Shown here: positions 2,317 to 26,081 of the stretch, piece by piece | Layout of the letters: every line of letters starts with the position of its first letter | Numbering within the stretch: position 1 is the stretch's first letter | Origin: a virus | IMG/VR virus record: IMGVR_UViG_3300045911_000098 | Coordinates: 1 to 30,285 of that record | DNA: 30,285 nucleotides | Reading direction: 5' to 3' (one strand) | Notes under the pieces: generated by a model | What the model was told of the DNA's origin: nothing | The model's input: only the letters and a program-made list of their open reading frames with translations | Databases searched by the model: none | Program-made: the position numbers and the translations under genes

Positions 2317-2413
2317 GCCCGCTAGCAGTCCAAAAACGGCCGAGGTGACGCGCAGGGGGCGGGCTAGTACTCGCCCCATGCCGGCGGAACCGGAGGCACC
2401 TCGGGCCGCTTTT
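2317..2413. terminator. GC-rich structured element, likely bidirectional terminator (copy 1)
   Basis: A GC-rich island in AT-rich surroundings. Outer arms CGGCCGAGGTG (2337-2347) and CACCTCGGGCCG (2397-2408) pair with one bulge; inside are two further stems (GGGGCG/CGCCCC and CCGG/CCGG). T-runs follow on both strands: TTTTT on minus (2332-2336) and CTTTT on plus. On minus it ends the long replication operon. Its plus strand is clearly related to the minus strand of the element at 25978-26081: both share GCCCGCTAGCA at one end and GAGGCAC...GGGCCGCTTTT at the other. Confidence 0.65.
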
Positions 2414-2415
2414 CT

Positions 2416-2607
2416 TCACTTATCTTTGAAGATTTCGTGAGCACGCTGAAGAATTAAAGAATTACTACCTAGCAAGAAAGTTAAGGGGTCTATAACTTTA
2501 TCATTACGAACTCTCCTGACTGTAACCAAAATATCTTTAGGACGATATTTAACGCGAATACAAATTTCGTTATCTTTGTAGACTTCTTTAGTTGTGAAAT
2601 CAGACAT
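2416..2607 (-). CDS. Small hypothetical protein (63 aa)
   Basis: Unrecognised. ATG 2607 follows AAAGGTG and begins five bases after the stop of the DHH gene. The protein is basic and beta-rich (ICIRVKYRPKDILVTVRRV) with a C-terminal helix ending RAHEIFKDK. Its TGA abuts the large GC-rich element, so it is the last gene of the replication operon. The basic character suggests nucleic-acid contact, as inference only. Confidence 0.7.
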   Translation of the reverse strand: MSDFTTKEVYKDNEICIRVKYRPKDILVTVRRVRNDKVIDPLTFLLGSNSLILQRAHEIFKDK

Positions 2608-2611
2608 GGCA

Positions 2612-3442
2612 TTACACCTTTGCTAATACATGATCTCTAGATACAGAAAATCCAGCGGCATTACGGTGTCCTCCACCGCTATATTTTTCTGCAACACGGG
2701 CAACATCAAAATCAATTGACCTCAAACTAAAGACTCTGGCAGTCGGAGTATCAAAGTATGTTGCTGAGAAAATTGATTCTCTACACAGGATGTTACCGAC
2801 ATCACTTGCAAATCGCGGTGGACACATTGCTGTAGGAACAAGTATGTAATCAATTACCATAGTGCGTTTGCAGGTCTCTATAATAGACGCTACATATTTA
2901 TCATGCAGCTTTTGAAGGCTACGTCCTCTGTCATATATTACAGATGGTTGGTACTTCAAATCATACATGAGAGACGCAAGCGCCTCAAAAGTATGTGGTT
3001 CTGAGTTAATTACATGATACACTTCTTTAGTACCAGGTAATTCAAACTTCCACAAGTCTCTATCTGAAATATGCTTAATTAAAAGAGGAGGCTCTGCTCC
3101 AGGATTTAAGTATTCCCAAGCAATCAATGCACCAGACTTTTCTTTAGTACAATTGCTCATATCAAATTTAGGGCCCTCTAACAACCTAATATCAGGATTG
3201 TCTAGAGCTGTTTGATGATGATCGAGCAAGATGATCTCTTCAGCTTCTTCGATAAGTTTTTTCATGACCTCAGGCTTATAACAGAAGTCTACCATAAAAA
3301 CACGTTTTTCTTTTACAGAAGGTGGCGCCCTATCGTAGAATGCCTCAAAGAACTCAAAAGCACTGTAAGATTTATACCAAAAGGCAAATGCTGCACCAAG
3401 ACCATCGGTACAATTGCCATGGTATATTACGAGGTCACGAGT
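2612..3442 (-). CDS. DHH-family phosphoesterase (276 aa)
   Basis: ATG 3442 is selected from the longer frame because AAGGAGAAGT precedes it; it overlaps the upstream gene's end by eight bases. The N-terminal DHH domain has NCTDGLG (D14), MVDF (D53) and the signature LDHHQT (D75-H77), which bind two metal ions. The C-terminal substrate domain ends with YSGGGHRNAAG (GGGH at about 256-259), typical of DHHA1-type subunits. The family hydrolyses phosphodiesters in short oligonucleotides or cyclic dinucleotides (NrnA, GdpP, RecJ are members). At 276 aa it is NrnA-sized, so nanoRNA or cyclic-nucleotide hydrolysis is more likely than RecJ-type exonuclease action. It may recycle nucleotides or degrade host signalling nucleotides; substrate unknown. 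Confidence 0.85.
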   Translation of the reverse strand, partial: TRDLVIYHGNCTDGLGAAFAFWYKSYSAFEFFEAFYDRAPPSVKEKRVFMVDFCYKPEVMKKLIEEAEEIILLDHHQTALDNPDIRLLEGPKFDMSNCTKEKSGALIAWEYLNPGAEPPLLIKHISDRDLWKFELPGTKEVYHVINSEPHTFEALASLMYDLKYQPSVIYDRGRSLQKLHDKYVASIIETCKRTMVIDYILVPTAMCPPRFASDVGNILCRESIFSATYFDTPTARVFSLRSIDFDVARVAEKYSGGGHRNAAGFSVSRDHVLAKV

Positions 3443-3671
3443 CATACTTCTCCTTAAATTCCTTTTCGAGAATCTCGCACGCTTTAACCCAAGCCTTTTT
3501 ATCAAAGAGGTTGTCTAAATTATCAAGCATAGCTGTATCTTTTGTTCTCAAGTAACTAAGAATTGCATGAACCATGATAATCTGAGCCATAGGGCCTGCT
3601 TTAGAGTAAGAACAGATATGACTAAGAAACTCTTCATTAGACATCTTTTTAACAGACTTATTATTTTGCAT
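3435..3671 (-). CDS. Small helical hypothetical protein (78 aa)
   Basis: Not recognised. The frame starts at ATG 3671 within the end of the upstream gene, with no good ribosome-binding site, so coupling or an inner start (M10) is possible. The sequence is mostly helical, with EEFLSHICSYSK, AGPMAQIIMVHAILSYL and a charged C-terminus (EILEKEFKEKYDS) whose codons also carry the ribosome-binding site of the DHH gene. Confidence 0.65.
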   Translation of the reverse strand: MQNNKSVKKMSNEEFLSHICSYSKAGPMAQIIMVHAILSYLRTKDTAMLDNLDNLFDKKAWVKACEILEKEFKEKYDS

Positions 3672-4014
3672 GTGATTTAGTGTGTTTGGCGTTTACGATA
3701 ACTAAATTACTTTGCAGTCTTGTAACAGCATCTTCCATAATCTTAATAGAAGCAGCAAGCCCAGGTCCTAGTTGATTATACATTAGCTCATCTTCTTTTT
3801 TGGTTTTAGCAAGAAATTCAACCAGTATACTGCTAGTACTTGTTTTTGATGTAATAAAGCCGTAAAATGCACCTCTTTCAATTCCGTCCATAAATACAAT
3901 TTTTAACAGCTCCAGTTGTATAGGACTAAAAGGCACATCTAGATTTGACATGTAATTTTCAAACTCTTGCTGACTCCATGTCTTTAAATCAGTAATTCCA
4001 TCAGGGACGATCAT
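3661..4014 (-). CDS. Hypothetical protein (117 aa)
   Basis: Unrecognised protein with ATG 4014 preceded by AAAGGATAACT. It has an N-terminal helix around LKTWSQQEFENYMSNL, a hydrophobic helix LELLKIVFMDGIERGAFYGF that may pack internally rather than span a membrane, and a coiled C-terminal half (IKIMEDAVTRLQSNL). It ends in a basic His/Lys tail. It lies nine bases after the upstream gene within the replication operon. Confidence 0.7.
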   Translation of the reverse strand: MIVPDGITDLKTWSQQEFENYMSNLDVPFSPIQLELLKIVFMDGIERGAFYGFITSKTSTSSILVEFLAKTKKEDELMYNQLGPGLAASIKIMEDAVTRLQSNLVIVNAKHTKSHAK

Positions 4015-4023
4015 AGTTATCCT

Positions 4024-4395
4024 TTAAAGTTTCCGCTTCATACATCTTTCGTGAAATATATCGTCAAGCTCTTTAACTAAATCCTTTCGTAATAAAAATC
4101 TAACAAGAGTGTATCGTCTAACCTTATAGATCGCTGAAAGCGCTCTGTGAAATAAAGGCTGCCAACTTTCAAGTTCTTCTACACGCTTGTTTAGTTCAGG
4201 ATATAGACTGCTTAGTCTGTCCGCTCTGGCTGTTAACGAGTTTATCTCGTTCCTAATAAGCTCACGAACATATTCTTTCTGTTGAAACTTTTCAGCTGTA
4301 AATTCTTCAGACGCATCTATAGAAAGTCTTGCGTAGTCTGTTACTAAATCCATCAACTTATTAGCTTGATTAAGACTCGGAGATAATTCTGGCAT
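4024..4395 (-). CDS. Hypothetical coiled-coil protein (123 aa)
   Basis: ATG 4395 has GGGG at six bases upstream and is preferred over a GTG at 4407; it overlaps the preceding gene by 26 bases. The sequence is largely helical with heptad-like spacing (EYVRELIRNEINSLTARADR, LNKRVEELESW) and a strongly basic end (RRYTLVRFLLRKD ... HERCMKRKL). It probably oligomerises. No family is recognised. Confidence 0.65.
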   Translation of the reverse strand: MPELSPSLNQANKLMDLVTDYARLSIDASEEFTAEKFQQKEYVRELIRNEINSLTARADRLSSLYPELNKRVEELESWQPLFHRALSAIYKVRRYTLVRFLLRKDLVKELDDIFHERCMKRKL

Positions 4396-4624
4396 CTTCA
4401 ACCCCACTATCTACTATTCGCCAGTTGTCTGGGTTTGCATCATAAACTTTAAGTGCTTCAAGGAGTAATGCAGCATTGCTAAGTGTCATTTCTGCTGTAA
4501 TAACATCTTCTACAAATAGCGCCTTTAAAGTAGCATCATCGTAGACATACAGTTCTATCAGCAGTTTTCTACCACCATCTTTTTCAGCGAATAACTGGAG
4601 CTTGTGTGTTTTCTTTTTTGACAC
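4370..4624 (-). CDS. Small hypothetical protein (84 aa), GTG start
   Basis: The frame begins with GTG at 4624, 41 bases inside the end of the exported-protein gene, with GAGG upstream. It encodes a lysine-rich N-terminus (SKKKTHKLQLFAEKD), beta strands (LLIELYVYDD) and an alanine/leucine helix (TLSNAALLLEALKVYD). Not recognised. The long overlap with the upstream gene is unusual even for this operon, but codon pattern and spacing support it being real. Confidence 0.55.
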   Translation of the reverse strand: MSKKKTHKLQLFAEKDGGRKLLIELYVYDDATLKALFVEDVITAEMTLSNAALLLEALKVYDANPDNWRIVDSGVEDARIISES

Positions 4625-5393
4625 AAATAGCTACCTCATCTTCCTTGCACTTAGGATTCTGCTTCGGTGCTCTCTTAGGCGCCTTGATTTGTGTTGTCTG
4701 CTCTTCATTATAATAGACATTAACAACTGTCGTTTGAGCCGGAGCAGTGGTGTTTGGTACAGCTGTTTCGTATCGAATTTTCTCCGTTAAAGGTGTTTTA
4801 AGAATCGAGCACGCTTCAGGCGATAGATTAACTTGAACATTTGTACTTGCTTCGAAGTCGGGCAACACTTTTTTCGCAAGCAGATTTTCAATTTGCGCCG
4901 CATCATAAAATTGGCACGTTTCAACCTTTGCATTACGGATAGCGATTGCTAAGCAGTTATCGCCATTAGAAGAGGAGTTTGCAATAGAAATGAAGTTCCA
5001 ACCAATAGCAAATGCGTTTGAACTTGCAACACCTTGTGGGCATGCAATAGGCGCAGGAATAGAGAATACAGGGCTTGGGAGTACCCACATTCTAGAACTT
5101 ACTTGTCCTCCTTGTGAGTTAACGTTTGCGTTGTTACTTGCAGACGAATCAGCGATTGCTCCTGAAGTCGAATTACCACCTCCAGCATTTGCACTGGAGC
5201 TCCCTGAACTGGATTGACTAGAAGCGTTACTCCCGGAAGTGCTTCCAGAATTTGCACCTGCAGTCGCTGTTCCATTCGAGACGCTCGTCTGATGTTGTTG
5301 AGTACTTTGAGTTTCTTTCGGGTAGTTAGTCGCATATGATGCTGACGTGTATAGGGATAGAAGAACTGCACAGAAGATAGATGTGTATTTCAT
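4584..5393 (-). CDS. Exported Ser/Gly/Asn-rich protein with C-terminal cysteines (269 aa)
   Basis: The start at 5393 overlaps the upstream stop as ATGA and follows AAGGTG. Residues 1-21 are a clear Sec signal peptide (hydrophobic core IFCAVLLSLYTSASYA, cleavage after AYA-type residues). Residues about 30-100 are low complexity (Ser, Gly, Asn, Ala, Gln). The folded part (about 100-200) contains IACPQGVASS, a GDNCLAIAIRNAK segment and further Cys, likely disulphides in the periplasm. It ends with a Lys/Pro-rich tail. Phages often encode secreted proteins with a low-complexity linker and a short Cys-containing domain; the role is unknown and could concern the cell surface or exclusion of other phages. 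It sits among replication genes, which is odd for an exported protein. Confidence 0.8.
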   Translation of the reverse strand: MKYTSIFCAVLLSLYTSASYATNYPKETQSTQQHQTSVSNGTATAGANSGSTSGSNASSQSSSGSSSANAGGGNSTSGAIADSSASNNANVNSQGGQVSSRMWVLPSPVFSIPAPIACPQGVASSNAFAIGWNFISIANSSSNGDNCLAIAIRNAKVETCQFYDAAQIENLLAKKVLPDFEASTNVQVNLSPEACSILKTPLTEKIRYETAVPNTTAPAQTTVVNVYYNEEQTTQIKAPKRAPKQNPKCKEDEVAICVKKENTQAPVIR

Positions 5394-6394
5394 TCAAACA
5401 CCTTGTCGAGGATTAGGGCAAGATAACTAGAGTCAATCTTGCCACCTGGAGCATCTTTAAGAAGATGCAATACTTGTGCGAAATATGCTAGATCAACACC
5501 AATCAGTTGTTCCCTTAACAAATCCTTGTCAGAAAGGTTAAGTTGGCTTACTTGGAAGATGATCTTAAGAAGTTGCCCGGCGTTGATTCTCCAACCTCTT
5601 TCGAGAAACTTTCGTGTTCTAAAGATAGATGCGACAGGGTATAAGCTGCCAATGTAGACGAGGTTTCGTGAGAGAGTTGCATGGAGAGCTTCTTTACTGC
5701 ATTGTAAATTATCATTAATATAATCATAATAACAAGTAGCATGCACAAAATCAAAATTTCGATGAATATCATTAGGTTCTCCATTAAAACGAATAATTAG
5801 TTGAAAGTTCTGACTTAGTGTAATTGCATTATCTGTCATAAAGACAGGACGAAAACGTGGTTTTGGTGGTACTTTAGGATTCGGACTTACACTGACATCG
5901 ACATCTGCTGCAATGTCCTTAAGATCTTGCATAGAGATATTTGTGATCGCATTATCTAAAGAATCTACAAAATTAATAGCTTCGATCTCCGGACGACTTT
6001 CAAAATAAAAATAAGCTTCCTGTCCTTCTGCAGCAGCTCCTGCACTTCTGATCATAATTTTAATACGCTTTTCAATTTCTCCTTTAATATTTGTAGCAGT
6101 CGTTTCAATAACAGTTGGCTGAATGCTTTTTGAAACATTATTGGCAAGTTGATTTGCAGAGAATCGATTGACGTAGTACTTGGCAGCAGTCAATGCAGCA
6201 TTATAGTTTTTAAAGTAGATATCGTAATCGTTTGGCTTCTCTCCAAGCAACAGAGAGGTTATAGCGCCACCAGACACTAAACAATTTTCTTTTAGATGAT
6301 CATGTATTATCTTGTTAGAAATAGTAGAAAGCCAATCTTCAATACGATCTCTAAGAATCTTTCTGATAGTTGTTGTCTTATACCCTATTGTCAT
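5390..6394 (-). CDS. Nucleotidyltransferase-fold protein (334 aa)
   Basis: The N-terminal region has SGGAITSLLLG (G42-G43, S47) followed by NDYDIYF (D56, D58). This is the G-G-x...S with D-x-D signature of the polymerase-beta-like nucleotidyltransferase superfamily, in which the two Asp bind metal. A third acidic site may be in FDFVHATCYYDY. The C-terminal half is helical with KFLERGWRINAG, as in phage members of this group. The reaction should be transfer of an NMP to an RNA end, nucleotide or protein; the acceptor cannot be told. The ligase gene overlaps it by four bases (ATGA). Length is shorter than a CCA-adding enzyme with full body/tail domains. Confidence 0.75.
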   Translation of the reverse strand: MTIGYKTTTIRKILRDRIEDWLSTISNKIIHDHLKENCLVSGGAITSLLLGEKPNDYDIYFKNYNAALTAAKYYVNRFSANQLANNVSKSIQPTVIETTATNIKGEIEKRIKIMIRSAGAAAEGQEAYFYFESRPEIEAINFVDSLDNAITNISMQDLKDIAADVDVSVSPNPKVPPKPRFRPVFMTDNAITLSQNFQLIIRFNGEPNDIHRNFDFVHATCYYDYINDNLQCSKEALHATLSRNLVYIGSLYPVASIFRTRKFLERGWRINAGQLLKIIFQVSQLNLSDKDLLREQLIGVDLAYFAQVLHLLKDAPGGKIDSSYLALILDKVFE

Positions 6395-7278
6395 CTATCA
6401 TCCTCAGTTCTGAAGCCTACAGCACGTGAAAACCTTGGTTTGTCTTTCATACCATACAGCATGAATCGAAACTTAAGCAGTTTACCTATATACGCCTCTC
6501 TGTCTCGCCAGATTGACTCTAATTCAGAATGTGTGAAACTACCAGGTGCTACTTCTAAAAGCCAGTCATCGTACTTTACAATAAACTTACCAACCATATT
6601 AGTTGGAACTAGACCAGCCTTTGAAGAAGATCTTTCAGAGTAGCCCTGGGCATCTACAGTCTGCACATTGGTATTATGCATCCTTTGCTCAAAATCTACA
6701 ATAACGCCTTCTTCCTCTTGGAATCTTTTCAGCTTGTAGATAATATTCTCTAAGTACGTTGCTCTGCCTTGCTTATAATGACTTCTTGGGTTTCTGAGAA
6801 TAATACCCTCATAGCCTTGACTTAGTACATCTGTCTCGTATTTAATGAGAGAATCATAGTCATTAACCCATTCATGCTTTACAAAACGGTACTCAGAAGG
6901 CAATCTATCACAAATTACTTCTAAGTCATTATATCTTTCTTCATATGGTTTATTTAAATCTCGTAGATAGTCAAATACGTAGTATCGAATTTCACCTGGC
7001 TTATCGTAACTCATTACATGACTTTGGGTCCTATTATAGACGTCAGGATCTGTTGGGTTACCACAGATTAATTCACCATCTAACTGCCCTAGTGATGTAA
7101 ATTCTTCTTGGACCTGCATAGAACGCAGTGGTTTCCACGTTCTAGAATAAGCCACCCCAGACCATGTTACACAGCGAATTCCGTCAAACTTAGGAGAACA
7201 CAGGTATGGATACTTAAGTCCTTTAAAGAAATTAGGATTATTAAGAGGGTCATCTTGTGGACATAACAAGACTCTCAT
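6391..7278 (-). CDS. ATP-dependent DNA ligase (295 aa)
   Basis: The adenylation site is PKFDGIR with the acceptor lysine K30 (motif I, KxDGxR). It is followed by LDGELICG (motif III), YYVFDYL (IIIa), EGIILRNP (IV) and YKLKRF (V), in the right order. At 295 residues it is smaller than T7 ligase (about 359), with a compact OB domain, so it is a minimal phage ligase sealing nicks after primer removal. ATG 7278 has GAGGAG upstream and overlaps the previous stop (ATGA), fixing it in the replication operon with the exonuclease and polymerase. Confidence 0.9.
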   Translation of the reverse strand: MRVLLCPQDDPLNNPNFFKGLKYPYLCSPKFDGIRCVTWSGVAYSRTWKPLRSMQVQEEFTSLGQLDGELICGNPTDPDVYNRTQSHVMSYDKPGEIRYYVFDYLRDLNKPYEERYNDLEVICDRLPSEYRFVKHEWVNDYDSLIKYETDVLSQGYEGIILRNPRSHYKQGRATYLENIIYKLKRFQEEEGVIVDFEQRMHNTNVQTVDAQGYSERSSSKAGLVPTNMVGKFIVKYDDWLLEVAPGSFTHSELESIWRDREAYIGKLLKFRFMLYGMKDKPRFSRAVGFRTEDDR

Positions 7279-17125: not shown

Positions 17126-17185
17126 TTTATACCTTGAAAGTTGAAATTAGAGATCCCTCACCTTGAGGGTTAAGAAAACGGCACT

Positions 17186-17397: not shown

Positions 17398-17799
17398 TTA
17401 CTCCTTATAAGAAAGCGCTGTGAGTCTTTCAGACTCTGCTATGTTAGGGTAACTCTTCACAAACATATTTGGTATTACATAGGAATCACCTCCAGAGTTG
17501 TTATTAATATTTGCAATTAGACTATAAGAATCGTTTAATTTGCGGAAAACATCAAATGTATCGGCAGCAAGTGTGATTGGAAGGAATTGTCCTAAGCTCT
17601 TTGAATATTTTGATGTCAGGATGGACTCCAAATCAAGAAATGTTTCAACTACATAAATACAACCACCCCATGACTCGGAAATTTCATCAGAGAATTCAGT
17701 ACCTGAATCTTTACAAACATCCTTAATAATTTGAACGTCAAGATCTAGTACACCAGGATACTCTTTCATAAATTCTGAAAACTTCGTAAACTTTTTCAT
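17398..17799 (-). CDS. Hypothetical protein (133 aa)
   Basis: Not recognised. It starts with ATG 17799 overlapping the RNA polymerase TGA (ATGA). N-terminal basic helix (KKFTKFSEFMKEYPG), an acidic middle (DSGTEFSDEISESWGG, YVVETFLDLES) and a mixed C-terminus with SLIANINNNSGGDSYVIPNMF. Its coupling to the polymerase gene could mean it modulates that enzyme, as T7 encodes small RNAP partners, but no sequence evidence supports it. Confidence 0.65.
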   Translation of the reverse strand: MKKFTKFSEFMKEYPGVLDLDVQIIKDVCKDSGTEFSDEISESWGGCIYVVETFLDLESILTSKYSKSLGQFLPITLAADTFDVFRKLNDSYSLIANINNNSGGDSYVIPNMFVKSYPNIAESERLTALSYKE

Positions 17800-20033
17800 G
17801 AAAATGCATACTCCGATTGTAGGATTAAGTTTATATCTAATGTACCAAAGTCTATGTCAGAAATATCTGCATGTATATCCTCTAAAATACTAGACAGAGG
17901 ATCTGCTGAATATAACTGAACAAAAGACTCTCTTACAATTTTGAACAAAGCATCCATATCACAAGGTGATGCACCATATGAATCATGGATAGTTGTTACA
18001 GGAAAACTACAGTTATAAACTGTAAGCGCTAAGTGTGCTGCATCAAGACTATGAATAATATTAGGACTTGCTCCTTGCGATTGTTTACCCTTAGCTGGAA
18101 TTGTATCTTCTATAAAAGAAACATTGATCTGCAGAGTATTTTCATAGTATTTTGTTGCAAGACGTTGCCCTTTTGGTGGGCCATACTGTATCCACAGTTT
18201 CTTTACAATACCCTCTGTGTAATGCTGTATAACTGGAAAGTTCGTAATAGGTACAACCCAGCTAAGAAAGCCACCTTCTTCATCTTTTCGTTTACCTGCT
18301 TTTTCAAACACAGACAATAGTTGCATTGGTCTTTTCAATGCAACTCTGCAATCATTATAAACTTGTCTACCAAGAAAAGCAGCCCAAGAGTGTTCAAGGT
18401 ATTGCAACAGTTCTATGCCATGCTTTCTGGCATCATCTATTTGCTGTTGTGAAAGACCGTATGCTGTACCACCATAAGGTAGAGTCATAATATTTCTTTT
18501 CACAATCTTTCTGATATGCTTAAGGTCTTTTATTCGTGTCCAGAATACTGGTGCACAGATTTGGCCAAGTTCAATGTTCTGACCTTTAAAATCTTTTATG
18601 CAACTAACTGCTTCAGCACGTTCATCTGACTTAGGCTCTTGAGAAACAATATTTTTCTTTAGTTGAACAAGGTTGTCTATATATGTTTGACATTCAGCTA
18701 TCTCTTCTTCAGACAACTGCGCAACTTGGGCGTTAATGTTTTGCCATACATGTTCGCCAATATATCTGTATAGGTCTCCAGGAGCTTTAGTTGGGACTAG
18801 ATTGACATGTGGAGCTGTGGTTTCATCTCTAGTCAATGCAGCAAGATGCTGACAACCATTATTACTACCATCAAGAAATATCTCTACACCTGTCATGTAA
18901 TCGTAATTATCAAAGCTACCAATAAAATACTGGTATTCGCGCAGCCTTCTTAATTCAATACACAACGCTAAGAACTGCCAAGGTTTATCAGCAGACATCC
19001 ACCCTTGTTTTTCTTTAGGATTTTCTGCATAAGAAAGCAATTCTTCTTCATGAGCTACCGCCCACTGAAAACGTTCTTCTAATGGGATTTTGTCAGTCTT
19101 CTCTTTATCAGCTCTATCTGAAACATTCGCCCAGTTCGACGCAAGACCAACCATCAACCACCAGTAACCACGTTCTGTAAGCTTCTTAGGCATATCTCTA
19201 AGTAGTAAACCTCTTGCGAGATCAGAACCTTGTTCATGCAGATAGGCTGTCGCTGGATATTTACGACCACGAAAGTCATAGTAGTAAAGATGATAGAAAG
19301 ATTTTCTAAGAAACTTCTTTGCAATAAGACCTATTGCTTTAGCTTCTCGTAACTTAGTTGCTTTTGCCTCTGGATTCTGCATTTCCCATATTTCAGCAAA
19401 TGCATCAGTTTTATTCTTAAGAGCCCAGAGATATAAGTCGAAGATTTCTTTATTAACTCTCCAACCGACTCTTTGAGCCCTATTAAGAACTTCAAATAAA
19501 ACCTTGTGTGTTTCAGGACGTATCAGCGCTAGTACGTCTTTGCTACCTGTTTTTACTATAGGCATTCCTGTAGAATGATATGCTGTTACCCAGGGTTCAT
19601 ATGGTGTCTCACTGGGTAACTTTTCTATTGTTGCTGCAGGTAGTTTTTGCCATAAGTCAGACAGTACATCATCGTTAACTACACGGACGATATACACAGC
19701 ATGACCATTAGAACCTGGCGCAAGATCTAATTCTACTACACCAGCTTCTTGAAAGCTATACAGAATAAAGGCACCAGTTTTAGCAGCTAGAGATGTGTCT
19801 GTCTTTAGTTTGAGTTGTCTACGTACGACATGACCAATAGCACAAATAACTTCTGAGAAGAAAAAATTGTATTTCTTATTACCTTTCTTTGGTCTAGTAT
19901 ACAAGTACAGGGTGCCAATTACTTTATCGATATACTTATTTACATCATGTTCTTTTAAGTACCTTAGAGGATTGTGTTCTGACAATTCAAGCTCATACCT
20001 TTTCATGAGGCTTGAAATTATCTCTTTTCGCAT
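17796..20033 (-). CDS. T7-type single-subunit RNA polymerase (745 aa)
   Basis: Transcribes phage genes from phage-specific promoters. Catalytic points match T7 gp1: motif A LDGSNNGCQHLAAL with D388 (T7 D537), VKRNIMTLPYGG with K512 and Y520 (T7 K631, Y639), the SPNIIHSLDAAHLALT segment, and TIHDSYGASP with H683 and D684 (T7 H811, D812). Length is about 140 residues below T7 RNAP, mostly missing from the N-terminal promoter-reading part. ATG 20033 has AAGGAGATT upstream. It lies in mid-operon rather than at the genome start. Confidence 0.95.
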   Translation of the reverse strand: MRKEIISSLMKRYELELSEHNPLRYLKEHDVNKYIDKVIGTLYLYTRPKKGNKKYNFFFSEVICAIGHVVRRQLKLKTDTSLAAKTGAFILYSFQEAGVVELDLAPGSNGHAVYIVRVVNDDVLSDLWQKLPAATIEKLPSETPYEPWVTAYHSTGMPIVKTGSKDVLALIRPETHKVLFEVLNRAQRVGWRVNKEIFDLYLWALKNKTDAFAEIWEMQNPEAKATKLREAKAIGLIAKKFLRKSFYHLYYYDFRGRKYPATAYLHEQGSDLARGLLLRDMPKKLTERGYWWLMVGLASNWANVSDRADKEKTDKIPLEERFQWAVAHEEELLSYAENPKEKQGWMSADKPWQFLALCIELRRLREYQYFIGSFDNYDYMTGVEIFLDGSNNGCQHLAALTRDETTAPHVNLVPTKAPGDLYRYIGEHVWQNINAQVAQLSEEEIAECQTYIDNLVQLKKNIVSQEPKSDERAEAVSCIKDFKGQNIELGQICAPVFWTRIKDLKHIRKIVKRNIMTLPYGGTAYGLSQQQIDDARKHGIELLQYLEHSWAAFLGRQVYNDCRVALKRPMQLLSVFEKAGKRKDEEGGFLSWVVPITNFPVIQHYTEGIVKKLWIQYGPPKGQRLATKYYENTLQINVSFIEDTIPAKGKQSQGASPNIIHSLDAAHLALTVYNCSFPVTTIHDSYGASPCDMDALFKIVRESFVQLYSADPLSSILEDIHADISDIDFGTLDINLILQSEYAFS

Positions 20034-20372: not shown

Positions 20373-20394
20373 AAAAAAAAAAAAAAAAAAAAAA
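20373..20394. repeat. A22/T22 homopolymer tract
   Basis: Twenty-two consecutive A on the plus strand (T on the transcribed-sense minus strand), just upstream of a tiny membrane gene. On the minus strand it follows a UUCG-capped hairpin by about 25 bases. The exact length in the sequence may be unreliable, since such tracts are error-prone. Confidence 0.8.
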
Positions 20395-20871: not shown

Positions 20872-20886
20872 AAAAAAAAAAAAAAA
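20872..20886. repeat. A15/T15 homopolymer tract at terminator
   Basis: Fifteen A on plus, then G and six more A. On the minus strand this is the U-run of the terminator at 20890-20940. Length may be uncertain in the read data. Confidence 0.8.
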
Positions 20887-21594: not shown

Positions 21595-21633
21595 AACCCC
21601 TTAAATACTCCTTTTGGAAGTATTTAAGGGGTT
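21595..21633 (-). promoter_or_regulatory. Perfect 15-bp stem hairpin in leader
   Basis: AACCCCTTAAATACT and AGTATTTAAGGGGTT are exact inverted copies with a nine-base loop (CCTTTTGGA on plus). On minus no U-run follows; it lies about 33 bases before the start of membrane protein A. Candidate RNase III site, transcription pause or protein-binding dyad. Confidence 0.6.
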
Positions 21634-21961: not shown

Positions 21962-21993
21962 ACCCTTCCCAGGGTTTCGACGCTCTTTAAGGA

Positions 21994-22176
21994 CTACTCC
22001 CAAGGTGGCGTCTCGTCAGTGACGACCTGCTTCGGCTCATCGCACAAGAAGAGCGTAAAGCCTGAGATTTCGATAGACTCTACAGGCATGCAGCCGAGAC
22101 GACTATCGTAAAGTATGGAAAGCTCCATACTGTCCGGGTACATCTCAGTTAATTTTCTCAGTTCTCCAAGTGTCAT
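21994..22176 (-). CDS. Small hypothetical protein (60 aa)
   Basis: A convincing small gene: ATG 22176 follows AAAGGCGAAG. It begins with a helix TLGELRKLTEMYPDSMEL, then strands LSILYDSRLG, VESIEISGFTLFLCDE and a polar tail. Short phage proteins often share this T-x-G-E-L-x-x-x-L-x-x-x-P-D start, but function is not known. It is the first gene after the promoter-like box at 22204-22240. Confidence 0.7.
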   Translation of the reverse strand: MTLGELRKLTEMYPDSMELSILYDSRLGCMPVESIEISGFTLFLCDEPKQVVTDETPPWE

Positions 22177-22203
22177 ACAAACTTCGCCTTTCTGAAGAGA
22201 TTC

Positions 22204-22240
22204 TTTCTCTCTTCATATAAGATGGGCACTTTTGCGCAAA
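22204..22240 (-). promoter_or_regulatory. Promoter-like box P1
   Basis: The minus strand carries CATCTTATATGAAGA followed by a purine-rich GAGAAAG, with TTGCG ten bases upstream of the core. The same arrangement with one mismatch in 22 core bases and the same TTGCG spacing occurs at 24438-24473. The core resembles the TATA-GAAGA start region of SP6-type phage promoters; a host -35/-10 reading (TTGCGC, 16 bases, TATGAA) is also possible. It precedes the 60-aa gene. Confidence 0.65.
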
Positions 22241-22283
22241 CTGAATGATACAAAAGACTGACATATAGCAGCTTTTTCGCAAG

Positions 22284-22547
22284 CTATTCCGCATCCCGGC
22301 TCGCCAGGAACGCGTATGCGTTCATCTCCATCCGCCGTTCCCCTTTATCATGTGCCACATCAGCCGCGTCAGCACTCCCAGCGCCATCAACGCCGGAATC
22401 GCCGCTATCGCCAGCAGTACGTACAAAAGGTTCACGCAGTCCATACGTTTCCTCGTCACTTTGCACGCGAGAGGCATGCGCCCATGTGTCCAGTCTGTCT
22501 CGCGCTGTAAAGCGCATAGGCTTTAAACGGAGGTAATTTGTTCCCAT
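22284..22547 (-). CDS. Hypothetical protein (87 aa), overlapped by a nested gene
   Basis: ATG 22547 has GAGGAACAAA upstream. The N-terminal 45 residues (TNYLRLKPMRFTARDRLDTW ... DEETYGLREPF) look protein-like; the C-terminal half is Gly/Ala/Asp/Ser-rich and coincides exactly with the nested membrane ORF in another frame, so its composition may be dictated by that gene. Not recognised. The true protein might end up being the N-terminal part plus a constrained tail. Confidence 0.55.
   Translation of the reverse strand: MGTNYLRLKPMRFTARDRLDTWAHASRVQSDEETYGLREPFVRTAGDSGDSGVDGAGSADAADVAHDKGERRMEMNAYAFLASRDAE
22322..22444 (-). CDS. Nested small membrane protein (40 aa)
   Basis: In a second frame within the 87-aa gene, ATG 22444 has its own GAGGAAACGT site. 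The peptide has a clear TM segment (VNLLYVLLAIAAIPALMALG) followed by VLTRLMWHMIKGNGGWR, i.e. a positively charged cytoplasmic end. The hydrophobic run is far better than chance, so I regard this as a real nested gene. Function unknown. Confidence 0.6.
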   Translation of the reverse strand: MDCVNLLYVLLAIAAIPALMALGVLTRLMWHMIKGNGGWR

Positions 22548-22617
22548 TTTGTTCCTCGTTGCAATAATGCCCTAACGGGTTAAGCGGACGCCGTGCCGGC
22601 GCCAACACAACTTCAAC

Positions 22618-22692
22618 TGGTAGTCCCAACTGGTTTCGAACCAGTGACCTTCGCCTTGTAAGGGCGGCGCTCTACCACTGAGCTATGGGACT
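22618..22692 (-). tRNA. tRNA-Val (UAC)
   Basis: Cloverleaf on the minus strand: acceptor AGTCCCA/TGGGACT, D-arm GCTC...GAGC, anticodon loop CTTACAA (UAC), T-arm with GGTTCGAAACC, and an encoded CCA (22618-22620). One C-A mismatch at the top of the anticodon stem (27-43). Reads GUA codons. Confidence 0.9.
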
Positions 22693-22696
22693 TTTT

Positions 22697-22785
22697 TGGT
22701 GCGCCCAACGGGAGTCGAACCCGTACGACCTTTTAAAGTCGGCGGATTTTAAGTCCGCTGTGTCTACCTATTTCACCATAGGCGC
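22697..22785 (-). tRNA. tRNA-Leu (UAA)
   Basis: Minus strand. Acceptor GCGCCTA/TGGGCGC, anticodon stem GCGGA/TCCGC with loop CTTAAAA (UAA), a long variable arm as in class II tRNAs, T-loop GGTTCGACTCC and encoded CCA (22697-22699). Reads UUA. Confidence 0.92.
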
Positions 22786-22798
22786 ATAATACAATTAG

Positions 22799-22872
22799 CC
22801 TGCCCAGAGGGAGTCGAACCCCCAACCTGTTGCTTAGAAGGCAACTGCTCTATCCAGTTGAGCTATGGACAG
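22799..22872 (-). tRNA. tRNA-Arg (UCU)
   Basis: Minus strand. Acceptor CTGTCCA/TGGGCAG, D-arm GCTC...GAGC, anticodon loop CTTCTAA (UCU) on stem GTTGC/GCAAC, T-loop GGTTCGACTCC. CCA is not encoded here, unlike the other four. Reads AGA. Confidence 0.9.
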
Positions 22873-22878
22873 ATCTTG

Positions 22879-23169
22879 TCACACAGTCCGAAACTTCTCA
22901 TTCTTGCTAAAGTTTCGCCTCAAGCGCTCTAATGCTTGCGGCACCCGCTTCTCGTATTCGGGGTCGATGTCTCCAAGGACATACCGACTCCCGCTTTTAG
23001 TAAAGGCTACATTACCTACTACCAGTAAGAGATTGCTGGTGACAATGTGTGTGCCGTCAGGGAACTGTCTGCTCCCTTTTGTTTTCCCCTGGAGCTTTGG
23101 AACTTTGAGCTCCGGCGCCTCGTATGGACTGCCAGTCGTGCACAACGACCAATTATAAAGAATTGTCAT
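22879..23169 (-). CDS. Hypothetical protein (96 aa) between tRNA genes
   Basis: ATG 23169 follows GAAAGGTAATGA. Beta-rich N-terminus (TILYNWSLCTTGSPYEAPEL), then HIVTSNLLLVVGNVAFTKSG and a charged helical C-terminus (EYEKRVPQALERLRRNFSKN). Not recognised. It sits between tRNA-Ile2 and tRNA-Arg and its composition is GC-richer than the replication genes. Confidence 0.7.
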   Translation of the reverse strand: MTILYNWSLCTTGSPYEAPELKVPKLQGKTKGSRQFPDGTHIVTSNLLLVVGNVAFTKSGSRYVLGDIDPEYEKRVPQALERLRRNFSKNEKFRTV

Positions 23170-23188
23170 TTCATTACCTTTCTAAACT

Positions 23189-23265
23189 TGGTAGGCCGTG
23201 CTGGACTCGAACCAGCGACCAAACGATTATGAGTCGTCTGCTCTAACCTGCTGAGCTAACGGCCC
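23189..23265 (-). tRNA. tRNA-Ile2 (CAU), AUA-reading
   Basis: Minus strand. Acceptor GGGCCGT/ACGGCCT, anticodon loop CTCATAA (CAU), T-arm CTGGTTCGAGTCCAG, encoded CCA. The anticodon and T-arm half closely matches bacterial ileX, with GACGACTCATAATCG and TTTGGTCGCTGG, rather than elongator Met. It is therefore most likely the lysidine-modified tRNA-Ile that reads AUA; elongator Met is the alternative. Confidence 0.85.
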
Positions 23266-23270
23266 TTTTA

Positions 23271-23480
23271 CTACTTTCGACGATACAACAAATCGTCTAC
23301 CTCAAGGAAAAATTCTAGTTCCTCCTCAAAGGTGCTGCAAAACAACCTGTGAGGAAACGTCCGAGTTGCCAACCCAGCTTCAACCTCACCCCGCATGTTT
23401 GCGTCTCTTGCTTTTTCAAGCAAAAGAGTTTTGGCCTCCTGATGGAGATCTTTCAACTTTTTGTAGAGTTCGGGTACCAT
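23271..23480 (-). CDS. Small hypothetical helical protein (69 aa)
   Basis: ATG 23480 has AAGGAGAACAC upstream. Helical throughout: VPELYKKLKDLHQEAKTLLL, EVEAGLATRTFPHRLF, then acidic EEELEFFLEVDDLLYRRK. Not recognised. Located between two tRNA genes and probably transcribed with them from the upstream promoter-like box. Confidence 0.7.
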   Translation of the reverse strand: MVPELYKKLKDLHQEAKTLLLEKARDANMRGEVEAGLATRTFPHRLFCSTFEEELEFFLEVDDLLYRRK

Positions 23481-23518
23481 GTGTTCTCCTTAAACGTGGC
23501 GTCCAACCTTTCTGAACT

Positions 23519-23593
23519 TGGTGCCGACTGTCAGATTCGAACTGACGACCTACCGCTTACAAGGCGGTTGCTCTACCCCTGAGCTAAGCCGGC
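23519..23593 (-). tRNA. tRNA-Thr (UGU)
   Basis: Minus strand. Acceptor GCCGGCT/AGTCGGC, D-arm GCTC...GAGC, anticodon stem ACCGC/GCGGT with loop CTTGTAA (UGU), T-loop AGTTCGAATCT and encoded CCA (23519-23521). Reads ACA. Confidence 0.92.
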
Positions 23594-23661
23594 ACAACCC
23601 GGATTCCATCTGCATGACACGAAACGAATTCGTGCCATTGATGGAGAACACGATAAAGCAT
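23584..23661 (-). CDS. Possible micro-ORF (25 aa) abutting tRNA-Thr
   Basis: ATG 23661 has GAAAGGACTG upstream and encodes LYRVLHQWHEFVSCHADGIR to a TAG that overlaps the 5' end of tRNA-Thr by ten bases. The overlap with a tRNA argues against translation, but the ribosome-binding site is good. Weak call. Confidence 0.25.
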   Translation of the reverse strand: MLYRVLHQWHEFVSCHADGIRVVPA

Positions 23662-23686
23662 TTCTCAGTCCTTTCAAAAGAAAGTT

Positions 23687-23767
23687 TTAAAACTCAAGCG
23701 CTAGAACAATACCCAGCGCGATAGTAGAACCCCATACGATGAGATATTGCCACCACTTTGCCTTCAT
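23687..23767 (-). CDS. Micro membrane peptide (26 aa)
   Basis: ATG 23767 follows GAAAGGTAACA. The product is KAKWWQYLIVWGSTIALGIV then LALEF: a basic N-terminus and one TM helix. It starts a few bases after the stop of the secreted/membrane protein gene, so co-expression is likely. Function unknown. Confidence 0.5.
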   Translation of the reverse strand: MKAKWWQYLIVWGSTIALGIVLALEF

Positions 23768-23769
23768 TG

Positions 23770-24195
23770 TTACCTTTCTGTTTTATAACAATTGGTTGTT
23801 GGCTGACCGCTGTAGTCAGCCTTGCATGTCTTCCCATTAGGGAATGTGATCCACATCTCCCCTGTCTTATTACCCCACTTGTCTAGTCTGTAAGTTTTTT
23901 GGGGCATCAGTCCAGCTCGCTTATTTGCTCGCATTTGAGCATCCTGTGCTTCTTTTGCACGGTTGCTATCCTTGATCGCCTGAGATTTGGCTTTCTGTTC
24001 CTCAGCAAACTTCTTGCTCTCCTCCTGGTGCTTCCTCCAATCCCAAGGCTGCTGTTCAGCAAATGCAACTCCGCTGAACAAAGCCAGCACTACAACAATG
24101 AGAATCCACTTCATCAATTTTCCTTTTTCAAAGACCCACTTGGCAGCCATGAAGGCCGCCAGAGTGAGCGGTACTGCAAGCACAATGTTTTCCAT
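23770..24195 (-). CDS. Exported or membrane protein with two in-frame starts (141 or 114 aa)
   Basis: From ATG 24195 (site AAAGAGAAA) the protein has a TM segment (ENIVLAVPLTLAAFMAAKWV) and then a second hydrophobic run. From ATG 24114 (site AAAGGAAAA) it starts MKWILIVVVLALFSGVAFAE, a good Sec signal peptide with cleavage after AFA. Both starts have good ribosome-binding sites. The mature part has a charged coiled region (RKHQEESKKFAEEQKAKSQA) and a C-terminal beta region with YRLDKWGNKTGEMWITF and GKTCKADYSG (two Cys). Either two products from one gene or one spurious upstream start. Function unknown; periplasmic location is likely. Confidence 0.7.
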   Translation of the reverse strand: MENIVLAVPLTLAAFMAAKWVFEKGKLMKWILIVVVLALFSGVAFAEQQPWDWRKHQEESKKFAEEQKAKSQAIKDSNRAKEAQDAQMRANKRAGLMPQKTYRLDKWGNKTGEMWITFPNGKTCKADYSGQPTTNCYKTER

Positions 24196-24215
24196 CGATT
24201 TTCTCTTTAAAGTAA

Positions 24216-24407
24216 TCAGCTCAAGAAAGGTTGGTAAGGTTCTTCTTTTTCAAAAGCGCCGTTCAACCACATAAAGTGAAAGTACGCGAGAACTCCAAGC
24301 ACAAACCCTGCGGCAGTAAAGCCTAACAGGGCCAAGATAATCGCGACCGGGCCGGCGTCCCATGACAAGACGCCAAGGGCTACAAAAGTAGAAAGAAGGA
24401 AAGACAT
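24216..24407 (-). CDS. Small two-TM membrane protein (63 aa)
   Basis: ATG 24407 with GGAGAAATGAT upstream. Two hydrophobic segments: about residues 3-16 extending into GPVAIILALLGFTAAGFV, and GVLAYFHFMWL, ending in an acidic EKEEPYQPFLS. It is the first gene after promoter-like box P2. Function unknown. Confidence 0.7.
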   Translation of the reverse strand: MSFLLSTFVALGVLSWDAGPVAIILALLGFTAAGFVLGVLAYFHFMWLNGAFEKEEPYQPFLS

Positions 24408-24437
24408 ATCATTTCTCCATTTGGTTAAGAGTCAGAA

Positions 24438-24473
24438 TTTCTATCTTCATATAAGATGGATGTTTTTTCGCAA
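24438..24473 (-). promoter_or_regulatory. Promoter-like box P2
   Basis: Second copy of the box at 22204-22240: CATCTTATATGAAGA then TAGAAAT on minus, with TTGCG ten bases upstream of the core. Twenty-one of 22 core bases agree between copies. It lies between the zinc-ribbon gene and the two-TM protein gene and should start transcription of the tRNA-containing region. Confidence 0.65.
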
Positions 24474-24494
24474 TTTTCTAGTAGCGTGCCTACT

Positions 24495-24662
24495 TTATTC
24501 AGCCTCTCTAATAGTGTCTGTACTACCGCAATATGGACACTCTAAATTGCCAGCGTCTACTGGCCAGACAGCAGTCCATAAGTGTTCACATGTAAGGCAC
24601 TCTGCTCTTCCATGACACCACACCGGTTCTTCTGGATGCGGTTCCGTTAAGGTACCAGTCAT
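24495..24662 (-). CDS. Zinc-ribbon microprotein (55 aa)
   Basis: ATG 24662 overlaps the endolysin TGA (ATGA), so it is translationally coupled. Four cysteines in two pairs, ECLTCEH at about 22-25 and ECPYCGS at about 42-45, make a classic zinc ribbon; an extra C16/H17 lies before. Small phage zinc ribbons are usually nucleic-acid or protein-binding. Its coupling to the endolysin is unexpected, but similar ribbons occur near phage lysis genes. Function unknown. Confidence 0.75.
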   Translation of the reverse strand: MTGTLTEPHPEEPVWCHGRAECLTCEHLWTAVWPVDAGNLECPYCGSTDTIREAE

Positions 24663-24985
24663 ACTGTCCTTTGGAAGTGAGGAGAGTCTTTAAAGGACTT
24701 CCAGAACATGCCAGCTTGATTTGCAGGGTCCAATGATTGCCAATAATGTCCAAGTTCTTCAGGATATATTAAGGACCCATTTTTTGTAAAGTGAAGGTCT
24801 GCAGCACACTTCTTTAAGTGCATACTATTCATTGTCTTAGAACGCCCTGTTTTAATATAGAACTCTTGCTGTTCTACAGTTCTGAAAACTTCACCAATTC
24901 TGACTTCGTAACCTAGCTCATGTGCCTTGTTAATAAGCTTCACAAGATCTCTAGAGAAAGCTTCTTGTTCACGACCTAATGACAT
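24659..24985 (-). CDS. M15-family endolysin, L-alanyl-D-glutamate peptidase type (108 aa)
   Basis: ATG 24985 is preferred over the frame start at 25000 because GAGGAGAAGTGAC precedes it. The zinc site of peptidase M15 is visible: MHLKKCAADLHF (H56, D63) and SPHFQ (H103). The EVFRTVEQQEFYIKTGRSK segment matches the R-T-x-x-x-Q-x-x-Y-x-x-G-R region of phage T5-type endolysins. It cuts the peptide stem of peptidoglycan. It is shorter than T5 Lys (137 aa) but keeps all ligands. Placed after the holin. Confidence 0.85.
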   Translation of the reverse strand: MSLGREQEAFSRDLVKLINKAHELGYEVRIGEVFRTVEQQEFYIKTGRSKTMNSMHLKKCAADLHFTKNGSLIYPEELGHYWQSLDPANQAGMFWKSFKDSPHFQRTV

Positions 24986-24986
24986 G

Positions 24987-25514
24987 TCACTTCTCCTCAA
25001 TTATTTTGGCAATTACAGCATCTTTATTTTGAGAAGATTTACTAGAACCGTAGAAGAAGAATATGATACCGGGTATAATAGTACCAAAAAGAAAGCCCTG
25101 GAATGTGTCAATCATCCTTATATTCTCAGCAGGTACTTCTAAAAAGAAAAGAGCAAATACAAATAGAATAGCAAATAGGGACCAGAGGATAGCGAAGTAA
25201 TAAACAAATCTTTTACTGAAAACATCATCTTGTCTTAAAGCTTCTGATTGCATCTGCCTAGCACTATCTTTATCTTTAAGATAAGCTAGTTCTACTTCAG
25301 ACTGCAGTTTGTTCTCACGTTCTTGAAAACCCCTTAAAGTCTCTTCATGTCTAAACTCAAATTCTCTAAGCTTAACATAATCAGCGTCTCCAAGGTTTGC
25401 TTTATCTACATCAACTCCTGTCTTCTCTTTAAACCAATCCTTCCCTTTAGCAAGGAAGGCATTAGCAAGAAGAGGCAAGCCTTTAGACATCAGTGCCATT
25501 GCAATCGGATGCAT
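24987..25514 (-). CDS. Holin, 3-TM-family type (175 aa)
   Basis: Near the N-terminus PIAMALMSKGLPLLANAF is a hydrophobic/amphipathic helix; residues about 45-100 are a charged coiled region; two strong TM helices lie at about 103-124 (FVYYFAILWSLFAILFVFAL) and 139-155 (GFLFGTIIPGIIFFFYG), followed by GSSKSSQNKD. This matches phage proteins of the Holin_3TMs group, which end with FFYGSS-type motifs. ATG 25514 has GGAGAAATT. It forms pores that release the endolysin encoded immediately downstream. Confidence 0.8.
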   Translation of the reverse strand: MHPIAMALMSKGLPLLANAFLAKGKDWFKEKTGVDVDKANLGDADYVKLREFEFRHEETLRGFQERENKLQSEVELAYLKDKDSARQMQSEALRQDDVFSKRFVYYFAILWSLFAILFVFALFFLEVPAENIRMIDTFQGFLFGTIIPGIIFFFYGSSKSSQNKDAVIAKIIEEK

Positions 25515-25603
25515 AATTTCTCCAGCCTATAAATTTTACATCTACCCGATTGATGGTGATCGGTATTGAAATTTTTTACAATTGATTCCCCGGTATTAAG
25601 GAG

Positions 25604-25669
25604 ATATTAACTAAGCCAAAAGGAAAGAAAACCGAAAAAAGAAAGAAAAGTTATATTAACGATATTAAC
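25604..25669. repeat. ATATTAAC repeats (iteron-like)
   Basis: Three direct copies of the octamer; the last two are nine bases apart. They lie in the AT-rich non-coding region and could be protein-binding sites or part of an origin. In AT-rich DNA some recurrence is expected by chance. Confidence 0.4.
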
Positions 25670-25709
25670 ATAACCTTTATTTCTTCTTAAGGTTCATGCG
25701 TTTGATGGT

Positions 25710-25729
25710 CGTTCCGCTTTCGCGGAACG
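25710..25729 (-). promoter_or_regulatory. GAAA tetraloop hairpin in lysis leader
   Basis: CGTTCCGC and GCGGAACG pair perfectly around GAAA on the minus strand. GC-rich in an AT-rich region and with no U-run, so probably a 5' leader stabiliser or processing site rather than a terminator. Confidence 0.55.
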
Positions 25730-25977
25730 GATGATTAACACTTCTTGATCCTGACTTACGCTAGTATCCTCTTCTAGTCCCTTTAAGTAGTTAGAAAGAC
25801 GTTTAAGCGTATATTAAAGGATTATGTTTTAAGAACTTCTTAAAGATATAAAATACACATACACATATCGCGATAATTTAACGGTATTTTTAACTTTTGC
25901 GAGACTTCGAAGGAAGCAAAAATTCAGGCTACTAAATACGCATTAAGCAATAGGGTGAAACTTCCAAAAATAAGTAC

Positions 25978-26081
25978 AAAAAAGCGGCCCAGAGTGCCTC
26001 GCGACGCCCACCGATGGGGGCAGCGATGGGCACCTCGCGGTTGGAGCACTCCGGACCAGTTTGCATTGCTAGCGGGCAAAC
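25978..26081 (-). terminator. GC-rich structured element / large hairpin terminator (copy 2)
   Basis: Minus-strand outer stem GGTCCGGAGTGC with GCACTCTGGGCC (12 bp, two G-U), a middle stem CGCGA/TCGCG and inner stem GCCCATCG/CGGTGGGC, then GCTTTTTTG. A small hairpin GTTTGC/GCAAAC with GCTAGC in its loop precedes it, and the TAG there is the stop codon of the GNAT-like gene. It ends the tail operon. Related in sequence to the plus strand of the element at 2317-2413. Confidence 0.75.

What the first reader, a model, noticed from the sequence alone, without database searches (positions are those of the whole stretch)
2317..26081. Two diverged copies of a GC-rich structured element at operon ends, in opposite orientation
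Seen directly: 2317-2413 (plus) and 25978-26081 (minus) share GCCCGCTAGCA at one end and GAGGCAC...GGGCCGCTTTT at the other, about 36 aligned bases there with about seven differences. Each holds a long outer stem, inner stems and a T-run. Loops differ while stems keep pairing, including G-U compensation in copy 2. Both sit where a long operon ends and a gene-poor stretch begins. They may be dedicated large terminators, a phage non-coding RNA or a mobile structured repeat. Interesting because the orientation is opposite although all genes point one way.
Basis: partly seen in the sequence, partly recalled or inferred. Interest (0 to 1): 0.75.

Follow-up and report, generated by a model that had tools for sequence, protein, structure and literature searches.

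The report
Paired inverted noncoding cassettes in phages
Two look-alike stretches of non-coding DNA in this phage belong to a family of short cassettes of nearly fixed length that sit in opposite directions at the same two gene-block boundaries in related phages, where they probably end or insulate one transcript before the next promoter.

Summary
Both copies exist, inverted, and their similarity runs past the T-run. In relatives the element has two conserved end boxes (about GCCCCaa..AGsTACCAGgtTGGnCC and GGGCCGCTTTTcTTcryTTATTTT), typically 80-82 nt apart, around a GC-rich interior with little conservation. Six genomes carry copies at both homologous loci, 20-30 kb apart: sense to the genes at one boundary, antisense at the other. 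One of the six was outside the training set. One genome has an extra copy where three relatives have none, so copies can be gained. RNAalifold finds no shared secondary structure (0 pairs in 15 copies), so the compensatory-stem idea fails for the family. Single copies do fold, and 12 of 15 fold better on the mRNA strand, whichever way their boxes point (copy 1 is an exception). Both main loci lie between the end of one gene block and one of the phage's recurrent promoter motifs (CCGTTAAnTTAACCC). Best reading: a retained, occasionally moving terminator/insulator cassette, comparable to T4 PeSL cassettes, whose directional ends act at DNA level. Function is inferred. No Rfam family matched; no convincing match was found in the phage-isolate collection or, by two exact patterns, in host genomes.

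The parts
2302..2435 (+). Copy 1 of the element (locus b): boxes on the plus strand, i.e. antisense to the genes
   Evidence: Sequence-only model match, 75.9 bits; 46.9 bits with the window left out of training
2324..2341 (+). 5' box of copy 1 (diverged: AGCAGTCCAAAAACGGCC)
   Evidence: Motif search at -81 from the 3' box
2405..2430 (+). 3' box of copy 1: GCCGCTTTTCTTCACTTATCTTTGAA, with the tail hairpin TCTTCA-CTTATCTT-TGAAGA reaching a few bases further
25957..26083 (-). Copy 2 of the element (locus a): boxes in gene sense
   Evidence: Sequence-only model match, 58.1 bits; 41.2 bits with the window left out of training
26053..26070 (-). 5' box of copy 2 (AGCAATGCAAACTGGTCC); the region just before it holds the stop codon (26069-26071) of the upstream gene
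25963..25988 (-). 3' box of copy 2: GCCGCTTTTTTGTACTTATTTTTGGA
2266..2280 (-). Promoter-like motif next to copy 1 (CCGGTAATTTAACCC, 1 mismatch)
   Evidence: homologous motifs in relatives
25870..25884 (-). Promoter-like motif next to copy 2 (CCGTTAAATTATCGC, 2 mismatches)
   Evidence: homologous motifs in relatives
17167..17181 (-). Third promoter-like motif of the window, with no element beside it (2 mismatches)
2612..3505 (-). DHH phosphoesterase gene near the end of the replication block, before copy 1
   Evidence: phrog_4771, E 2.4e-79
26069..26542 (-). ORF whose stop codon lies inside the start of copy 2; no family match
17796..20033 (-). 745-aa T7-type RNA polymerase gene, in the block downstream of copy 2
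   Evidence: PF00940, E 4.8e-68; phrog_414, E 1.5e-107

Best explanation
A family of roughly 125-145 bp non-coding cassettes. Shown: two conserved, directional end boxes, typically 80-82 nt apart, around a GC-rich interior with little sequence conservation; two homologous loci at the ends of gene blocks, each beside a recurrent promoter motif, with the same opposite orientation in related genomes; one lineage-specific extra copy. Inferred: in the mRNA that crosses it the cassette folds into a GC-rich stem-loop that ends or insulates the upstream transcript (late block at copy 2, replication block at copy 1) before the next phage promoter. Also inferred: the directional ends are kept because they act at DNA level (spread of the cassette, or binding of a phage protein), so their orientation need not match transcription.
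For: Synteny of both copies with G004. Six genomes hold both loci with the same orientations (window, G004, G013, G019, G010, G046), G046 without having been in the training set. Both-strand motif search: in the top-scoring 22-mer solution 13 of 14 confident 'a' regions are sense and 9 of 9 confident 'b' regions antisense. Promoter motif beside both loci; 102 of 108 matches in 25 records are on the gene strand. Gene-sense strand folds better in 12 of 15 copies, and in 15 of 22 'a' and 9 of 13 'b' longer regions. Copy 2 in gene sense ends in a stem followed by T6; copy 1 folds on both strands with a T-run after each. Extra copy in G010: 158-nt gap where G013, G014 and G019 have 1 to 17 nt between the same two genes.
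Against: A simple terminator scan lists neither element (its loop limit of 3-8 may exclude them). In the printed sequences most antisense copies other than copy 1 show no T-run directly after the stem in gene sense (read by eye, not tested). The extra G010 copy lies before a head-protein gene with no promoter motif found between them, where full termination would be harmful. Three of five promoter classes have no element. Copy 1 itself is not among the 12 copies that favour the gene strand (-46.0 against -46.2), though it does in longer stretches. The strand test has no genome-wide control other than shuffles of each strand. 13 of 24 records show no copy above the shuffle maximum.
Confidence: 0.45

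Rival explanations
1. A purely mobile, non-autonomous DNA element with no regulatory role; it tolerates only places after stop codons, and its ends are kept for mobilisation.
For: Lineage-specific copy in G010 and a weak one elsewhere in G009 (E 0.0056); either orientation; ends of copies within one genome somewhat more alike than re-paired ones (3 to 15 of 120 permutations over six tests).
Against: Two loci are kept in the same place and orientation across phages with RNA polymerases 54-59% identical; no mobilising gene was identified; the ends do not pair consistently with each other; no target duplication shown.
Confidence: 0.15
2. A DNA site for a phage replication, recombination or partition protein, two inverted sites bracketing the RNA polymerase and replication segment.
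For: Directional ends with near-constant spacing and inverted pairing in six genomes.
Against: No base-skew sign switch at the elements in the seven genomes profiled; G010 has a third copy; no genome examined shows the segment inverted, all RNA polymerase-side genes running with the rest.
Confidence: 0.12
3. A start or landing signal for a packaged RNA polymerase (the MuF-RNA polymerase fusion), giving early transcription of the two blocks next to the elements.
For: The clade encodes a head protein fused to RNA polymerase domains; copy 2 stands before the block with the 745-aa RNA polymerase and copy 1 before the block of small ORFs; N4 virion RNA polymerase uses hairpin promoters whose non-conserved stem bases are free (PMC4496689, passages and part of one section).
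Against: The two elements point opposite ways while both blocks are read the same way; 3-nt-loop hairpins are not enriched in the 15 copies (3 against 2.2 expected, 24 of 60 shuffles as high) and only marginally in 35 regions (15 against 9.2, 3 of 60).
Confidence: 0.1
4. Each copy is a gene for a small structured RNA read in box sense and ending at the T-run.
For: Conserved ends, near-fixed length, stem and T-run in box sense.
Against: No shared structure (0 pairs); at the antisense locus the gene-sense strand usually folds better; no promoter of its own was recognised; no Rfam match.
Confidence: 0.1
5. Chance resemblance of two GC-rich palindromes.
For: Inside the window alone the match is weak (E 0.018).
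Against: Leave-one-genome-out scores of 41-47 bits against a shuffle maximum of 13.3; syntenic copies in relatives.
Confidence: 0.01

Closest known systems
PeSL cassettes (composite promoter-terminator motifs) of T4-like phages
   Same: Short non-coding stem-loop plus promoter at gene-block borders, regarded as mobile. What I know of them here comes from a passage and a reference title in PMC4503421 and from recall; the two primary papers were not held.
   Different: Here the promoter is a phage-RNA-polymerase-type motif, the stem-loop has conserved directional end boxes and near-fixed length, and the same two loci carry it in opposite orientations.
Intrinsic terminators of phage and bacterial RNA polymerases
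   Same: GC-rich stem followed by a T-run in copy 2 (gene sense) and on both strands of copy 1.
   Different: Long conserved sequence on both sides of the stem, conserved past the T-run; antisense copies in relatives mostly lack the T-run in gene sense.
MITEs and other short non-autonomous mobile elements
   Same: Short, non-coding, in either orientation, with at least one lineage-specific copy.
   Different: Ends are not inverted repeats of each other; the interior is less conserved than the ends; no target duplication shown.
N4 virion RNA polymerase hairpin promoters
   Same: Hairpin-forming DNA in a phage with a probable packaged single-subunit RNA polymerase.
   Different: Much longer, with end boxes; no enrichment of 3-nt-loop hairpins in the copies.

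Membership tests
Intrinsic terminator | GC-rich stem directly followed by a T-run in the direction of the upstream gene | tested here: inconclusive
   Seen in copy 2 and on both strands of copy 1; the automatic scan listed neither; other antisense copies mostly lack it by eye.
Intrinsic terminator | Transcripts end there | not testable with these tools
   No RNA data.
PeSL cassette | Stem-loop and promoter together at a gene-block border | tested here: met
   Promoter motif beside both loci in the window and in relatives.
PeSL cassette | Early promoter of the T4 type, in a T4-like phage | tested here: not met
   The motif is CCGTTAAnTTAACCC and the phage is a T7-polymerase-type phage near Naomviridae. 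The definition is partly recalled.
Structured non-coding RNA family | Shared base pairs supported by covariation | tested here: not met
   RNAalifold 0 pairs on 15 copies; fixed-register tests negative. Flexible-register tail hairpin supported.
MITE | Terminal inverted repeats | tested here: not met
   5' and 3' ends do not pair better within than between copies at any fixed register (34 of 200 permutations).
MITE | Target-site duplication | tested here: inconclusive
   Flanks of the filled and empty G010-type sites cannot be aligned base by base.
N4-type virion RNA polymerase promoter | Short hairpin with a 3-base loop around -11 | tested here: not met
   No excess of 3-nt-loop hairpins in the 15 copies; marginal in 35 regions. 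Definition from PMC4496689, passages.

The most novel reading that the evidence does not exclude
The inverted pair marks the two blocks that have to be expressed first, and its conserved ends are the DNA landing or start signal of an RNA polymerase packaged in the head (the MuF-protein fusion) and injected with the genome: a two-site, orientation-inverted early-transcription element quite unlike N4's short hairpin promoters.
Probability: 0.1. Interest if true: 0.85.

Novelty: new variant of a known kind. Interest (0 to 1): 0.58.

Why it matters
It gives a recognisable family of non-coding cassettes, with a conserved inverted pair, in a clade of uncultivated phages that use single-subunit RNA polymerases. 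Together with the recurrent promoter motif it predicts the transcription units of these genomes. It also poses a testable question: why are ends conserved in opposite directions when the genes run one way? A DNA-level recognition system, or a new route by which phages spread terminators between gene blocks, would answer it.

Tried and rejected
Chance similarity: rejected. A conserved RNA fold with compensatory changes: rejected for the family. An outer stem between the 5' and 3' boxes looked tempting by eye but is no better than pairing boxes of different copies. A 5' hairpin around the TACC centre: 1746, 272, 1960 and 345 of 5000 permutations as good with Watson-Crick pairs over four settings; the best of all scorings was 195 of 5000. 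The tail hairpin weakens when G-U on the box strand is allowed (40, 70, 23 and 1335 of 5000) and holds when G-U on the other strand is allowed (29, 24, 4 and 24 of 5000); an earlier single-setting run gave 9 of 5000. Base-skew switch at the elements: none seen in seven genomes. N4-like 3-nt loops: not enriched in the copies. Host copies: two exact-pattern scans of the species-genome collection gave none; exact patterns would miss diverged copies. Wider viral scan with the 3' box: 27 stretches; the ones with both boxes were known members; L196 and L197 have the 3' box with two promoter-like motifs nearby but no 5' box (E 0.15 for L197) and were left open. DSS3_VP1: no family-model hit in either part; no promoter excess in its first 50 kb (1 match, 2.46 expected, up to 3 mismatches; the second part was not searched for the promoter). 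Isolate phages by blastn at E up to 10: best E 0.5, nothing convincing.

Rows dropped before counts. Searches used 22 'a' regions: 21 of the 27 printed, plus copy 2. L036, L037, L038 and L049 were left out as AT-rich with no visible element, L079 and L090 as near-duplicates of L044 and L058. They used 13 'b' regions, those printed. One search left out G005 (99.996% identical to G004); G001 did not enter (no RNA polymerase in the contig); 24 records were scanned. In one search G045 9409(+), 15.1, also passes the shuffle maximum, but it matches the 3' box only and I treat it as false. The 15 copies were chosen because they carry the boxes, so spacing seen in them is selected; the unselected figure is (10 of 19 at -80 to -82). 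In some searches weak hits (E 0.0003 to 0.15) in L216, L214, L141, L139, L182 and L089 were not interpreted, except L139, which is the same place as L101.
Full report
WHAT THE WINDOW IS. The window is a 30,285-base record of an uncultivated virus. Its recognisable genes are on the minus strand: T7-type RNA polymerase, DNA polymerase, primase-helicase, ribonucleotide reductase, ligase, DHH phosphoesterase and others, with five tRNAs. The best isolate matches of the RNA polymerase are Bacteriophage DSS3_PM1 and DSS3_VP1 at 35% identity; DSS3_VP1 is classed in Naomviridae. Another IMG/VR contig, G001 here, overlaps window 25725-30285 at 100% over 4,561 bases, so the two come from the same or nearly the same genome.

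CHECK OF THE OBSERVATION. Both copies are present and inverted. Self-BLAST alone gives only E 0.018 over 44 bp. The case rests on relatives. A pattern from the shared 3' part led to G004, a 76.9-kb contig. It is collinear with the window in reverse and has elements at the two corresponding places, again inverted and about 24.7 kb apart.

THE FAMILY. An alignment of three RNA polymerases brought in 62 loci from IMG/VR. A motif search on both strands of the regions upstream of the promoter motif at the two loci (22 'a', 13 'b') gave the 3' box, GCCGCTTTTcTTCAcTTATTTT. In the top-scoring 22-mer solution, regions with posterior 0.9 or more have it in gene sense in 13 of 14 'a' regions (exception L061) and in antisense in 9 of 9 'b' regions; in the next solution the counts are 12 of 12 and 9 of 10 (exception L101). 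Some of these matches lie at odd positions (L052, L071, L081, G003 'b') and are doubtful. A second motif, AAGsTACCAGGtTGGnCC, searched without any constraint on spacing, lies at -80 to -82 in 10 of 19 copies. MAFFT aligns 15 chosen copies almost without gaps between the boxes. The interior is weakly conserved: mean alignment score 0.34 per position among 'a' copies against 0.26 for shuffled partners.

HOW SURE, HOW WIDESPREAD. A two-box model, trained each time without the genome being scanned, was run over 24 records. The highest value in 144 shuffled strand scans was 13.3. Scores above it: window 46.9 and 41.2; G004 60.0 and 52.6; G013 60.0 and 48.2; G019 49.9 and 44.3; G010 54.8, 45.5 and 19.5; G014 64.7; G018 59.2; G016 23.4; G046 19.4; G009 17.3; G045 15.1 (3' box only, regarded as false). 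So 11 of 24 records pass, 10 of them credibly. A sequence-only Infernal model over 88 sources finds the 15 training copies and, in G046, which was not in the training set, both copies in the predicted orientation (E 2.1e-5 sense, 1.9e-6 antisense). Weaker untrained hits are sense upstream of the RNA polymerase (L054, L041, L091) and antisense after the DHH gene (L106, L101). Six genomes thus hold both copies: window, G004, G013, G019, G010 and G046. Several other relatives have GC-rich sequence at these loci without recognisable boxes, and some 'a' loci have none.

PROMOTER MOTIF. CCGTTAAnTTAACCC, with up to 2 mismatches, has exactly five gene-strand matches in 12 of 20 records over 60 kb (range 0 to 7), and 102 of 108 matches in 25 records lie on the gene strand (my counts). 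I take it as the promoter of the 745-aa RNA polymerase; that is inference. Sorted by position into five classes, the downstream sequences look class-specific and several begin with a possible hairpin (by eye). The elements stand beside two of the five classes: the one before the lysis/tRNA/RNA polymerase block (locus 'a', copy 2) and the one before a block of small ORFs (locus 'b', copy 1). In the window the motifs beside copies 2 and 1 carry 2 and 1 mismatches.

STRUCTURE. RNAalifold predicts 0 pairs on the 15 copies. Tests that compare pairing within a copy with pairing between parts of different copies give nothing at fixed register (34 of 200; 172 and 168 of 300). With flexible register a small hairpin in the AT-rich tail is supported: 3 to 91 of 5000 permutations as good over four settings (several settings were tried, so the smallest value is optimistic). 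An interior hairpin is weaker (145 of 5000). The gene-sense strand has the lower energy in 12 of 15 copies, including 7 of 9 whose boxes are antisense; the extra G010 copy reaches z -6.48 in gene sense against -2.44 in box sense. Copy 1 is one of the three exceptions by a hair (-46.0 against -46.2), though longer stretches of it favour gene sense. I read this as weak evidence that any RNA role lies in the ordinary mRNA, and that the direction of the boxes serves something else.

MOBILITY. In G010 an extra antisense copy lies in a 158-nt gap between a small ORF and the head-protein gene; in the three other records that have these two genes side by side (G013, G014, G019) the gap is 9, 1 and 17 nt (gaps read from the printed sequence). 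G009 has a weak sense copy at another place (17.3 bits; E 0.0056). Ends of copies within one genome are somewhat more alike than re-paired ones (3 to 15 of 120 permutations over six tests).

COMPARISON. No Rfam family in the window or in 15 'b' loci apart from tRNAs; no convincing match in the isolate collection by blastn; none in species genomes by two exact patterns. The nearest known kind is the PeSL cassette of T4-like phages (passage in PMC4503421; the primary papers were not held; otherwise recalled). Six literature searches (listings and starts of abstracts only) showed no paper on such elements in these phages; they cover one open-access library and prove no absence.

VERDICT. A real family of phage cassettes that I could not match to a described one, most likely terminator/insulator cassettes whose ends have a DNA-level function. 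Function is unproven, and the conserved opposite orientation is the open question.

Noticed in passing
L028 2136-6824 (-) (G001, same phage as the window); L019 3931-8616; L112 21242-25633 (DSS3_VP1): A head protein of the MuF type fused to single-subunit RNA polymerase domains (phrog_241 plus phrog_414 and phrog_2051; in L019 also PF04233 plus PF00940): probably a packaged RNA polymerase besides the 745-aa one. In DSS3_VP1 it is annotated only as head morphogenesis. Passages of PMC5512222 describe N4-type virion polymerases as fused to other domains; this fusion was not in the passages I saw.
   Followed up: partly
L126 6280-9531 (G010): The G010 member of that head-protein family is shorter (1083 aa) with only a short, weak RNA polymerase match (E 8.8e-7), and the extra element copy lies directly before it.
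   Followed up: no
whole genomes G004, G013, G019 and others: About five gene-strand promoter-like motifs per genome, in syntenic places, with class-specific leader sequences that often could form a hairpin.
   Followed up: partly
window 20373-20394 and 20872-20886 (-): Runs of 22 and 15 T on the gene strand in the gene-poor stretch before the RNA polymerase gene.
   Followed up: no
window 22204-22239 and 24438-24473: A 36-bp direct repeat at 83% identity containing CATCTTATATGAAGA on the minus strand, upstream of small ORFs.
   Followed up: no
window 21595-21633: A 39-bp inverted repeat (CCCCTTAAATACTTCC...GGAGTATTTAAGGGG on the minus strand) in the gene-poor stretch.
   Followed up: no
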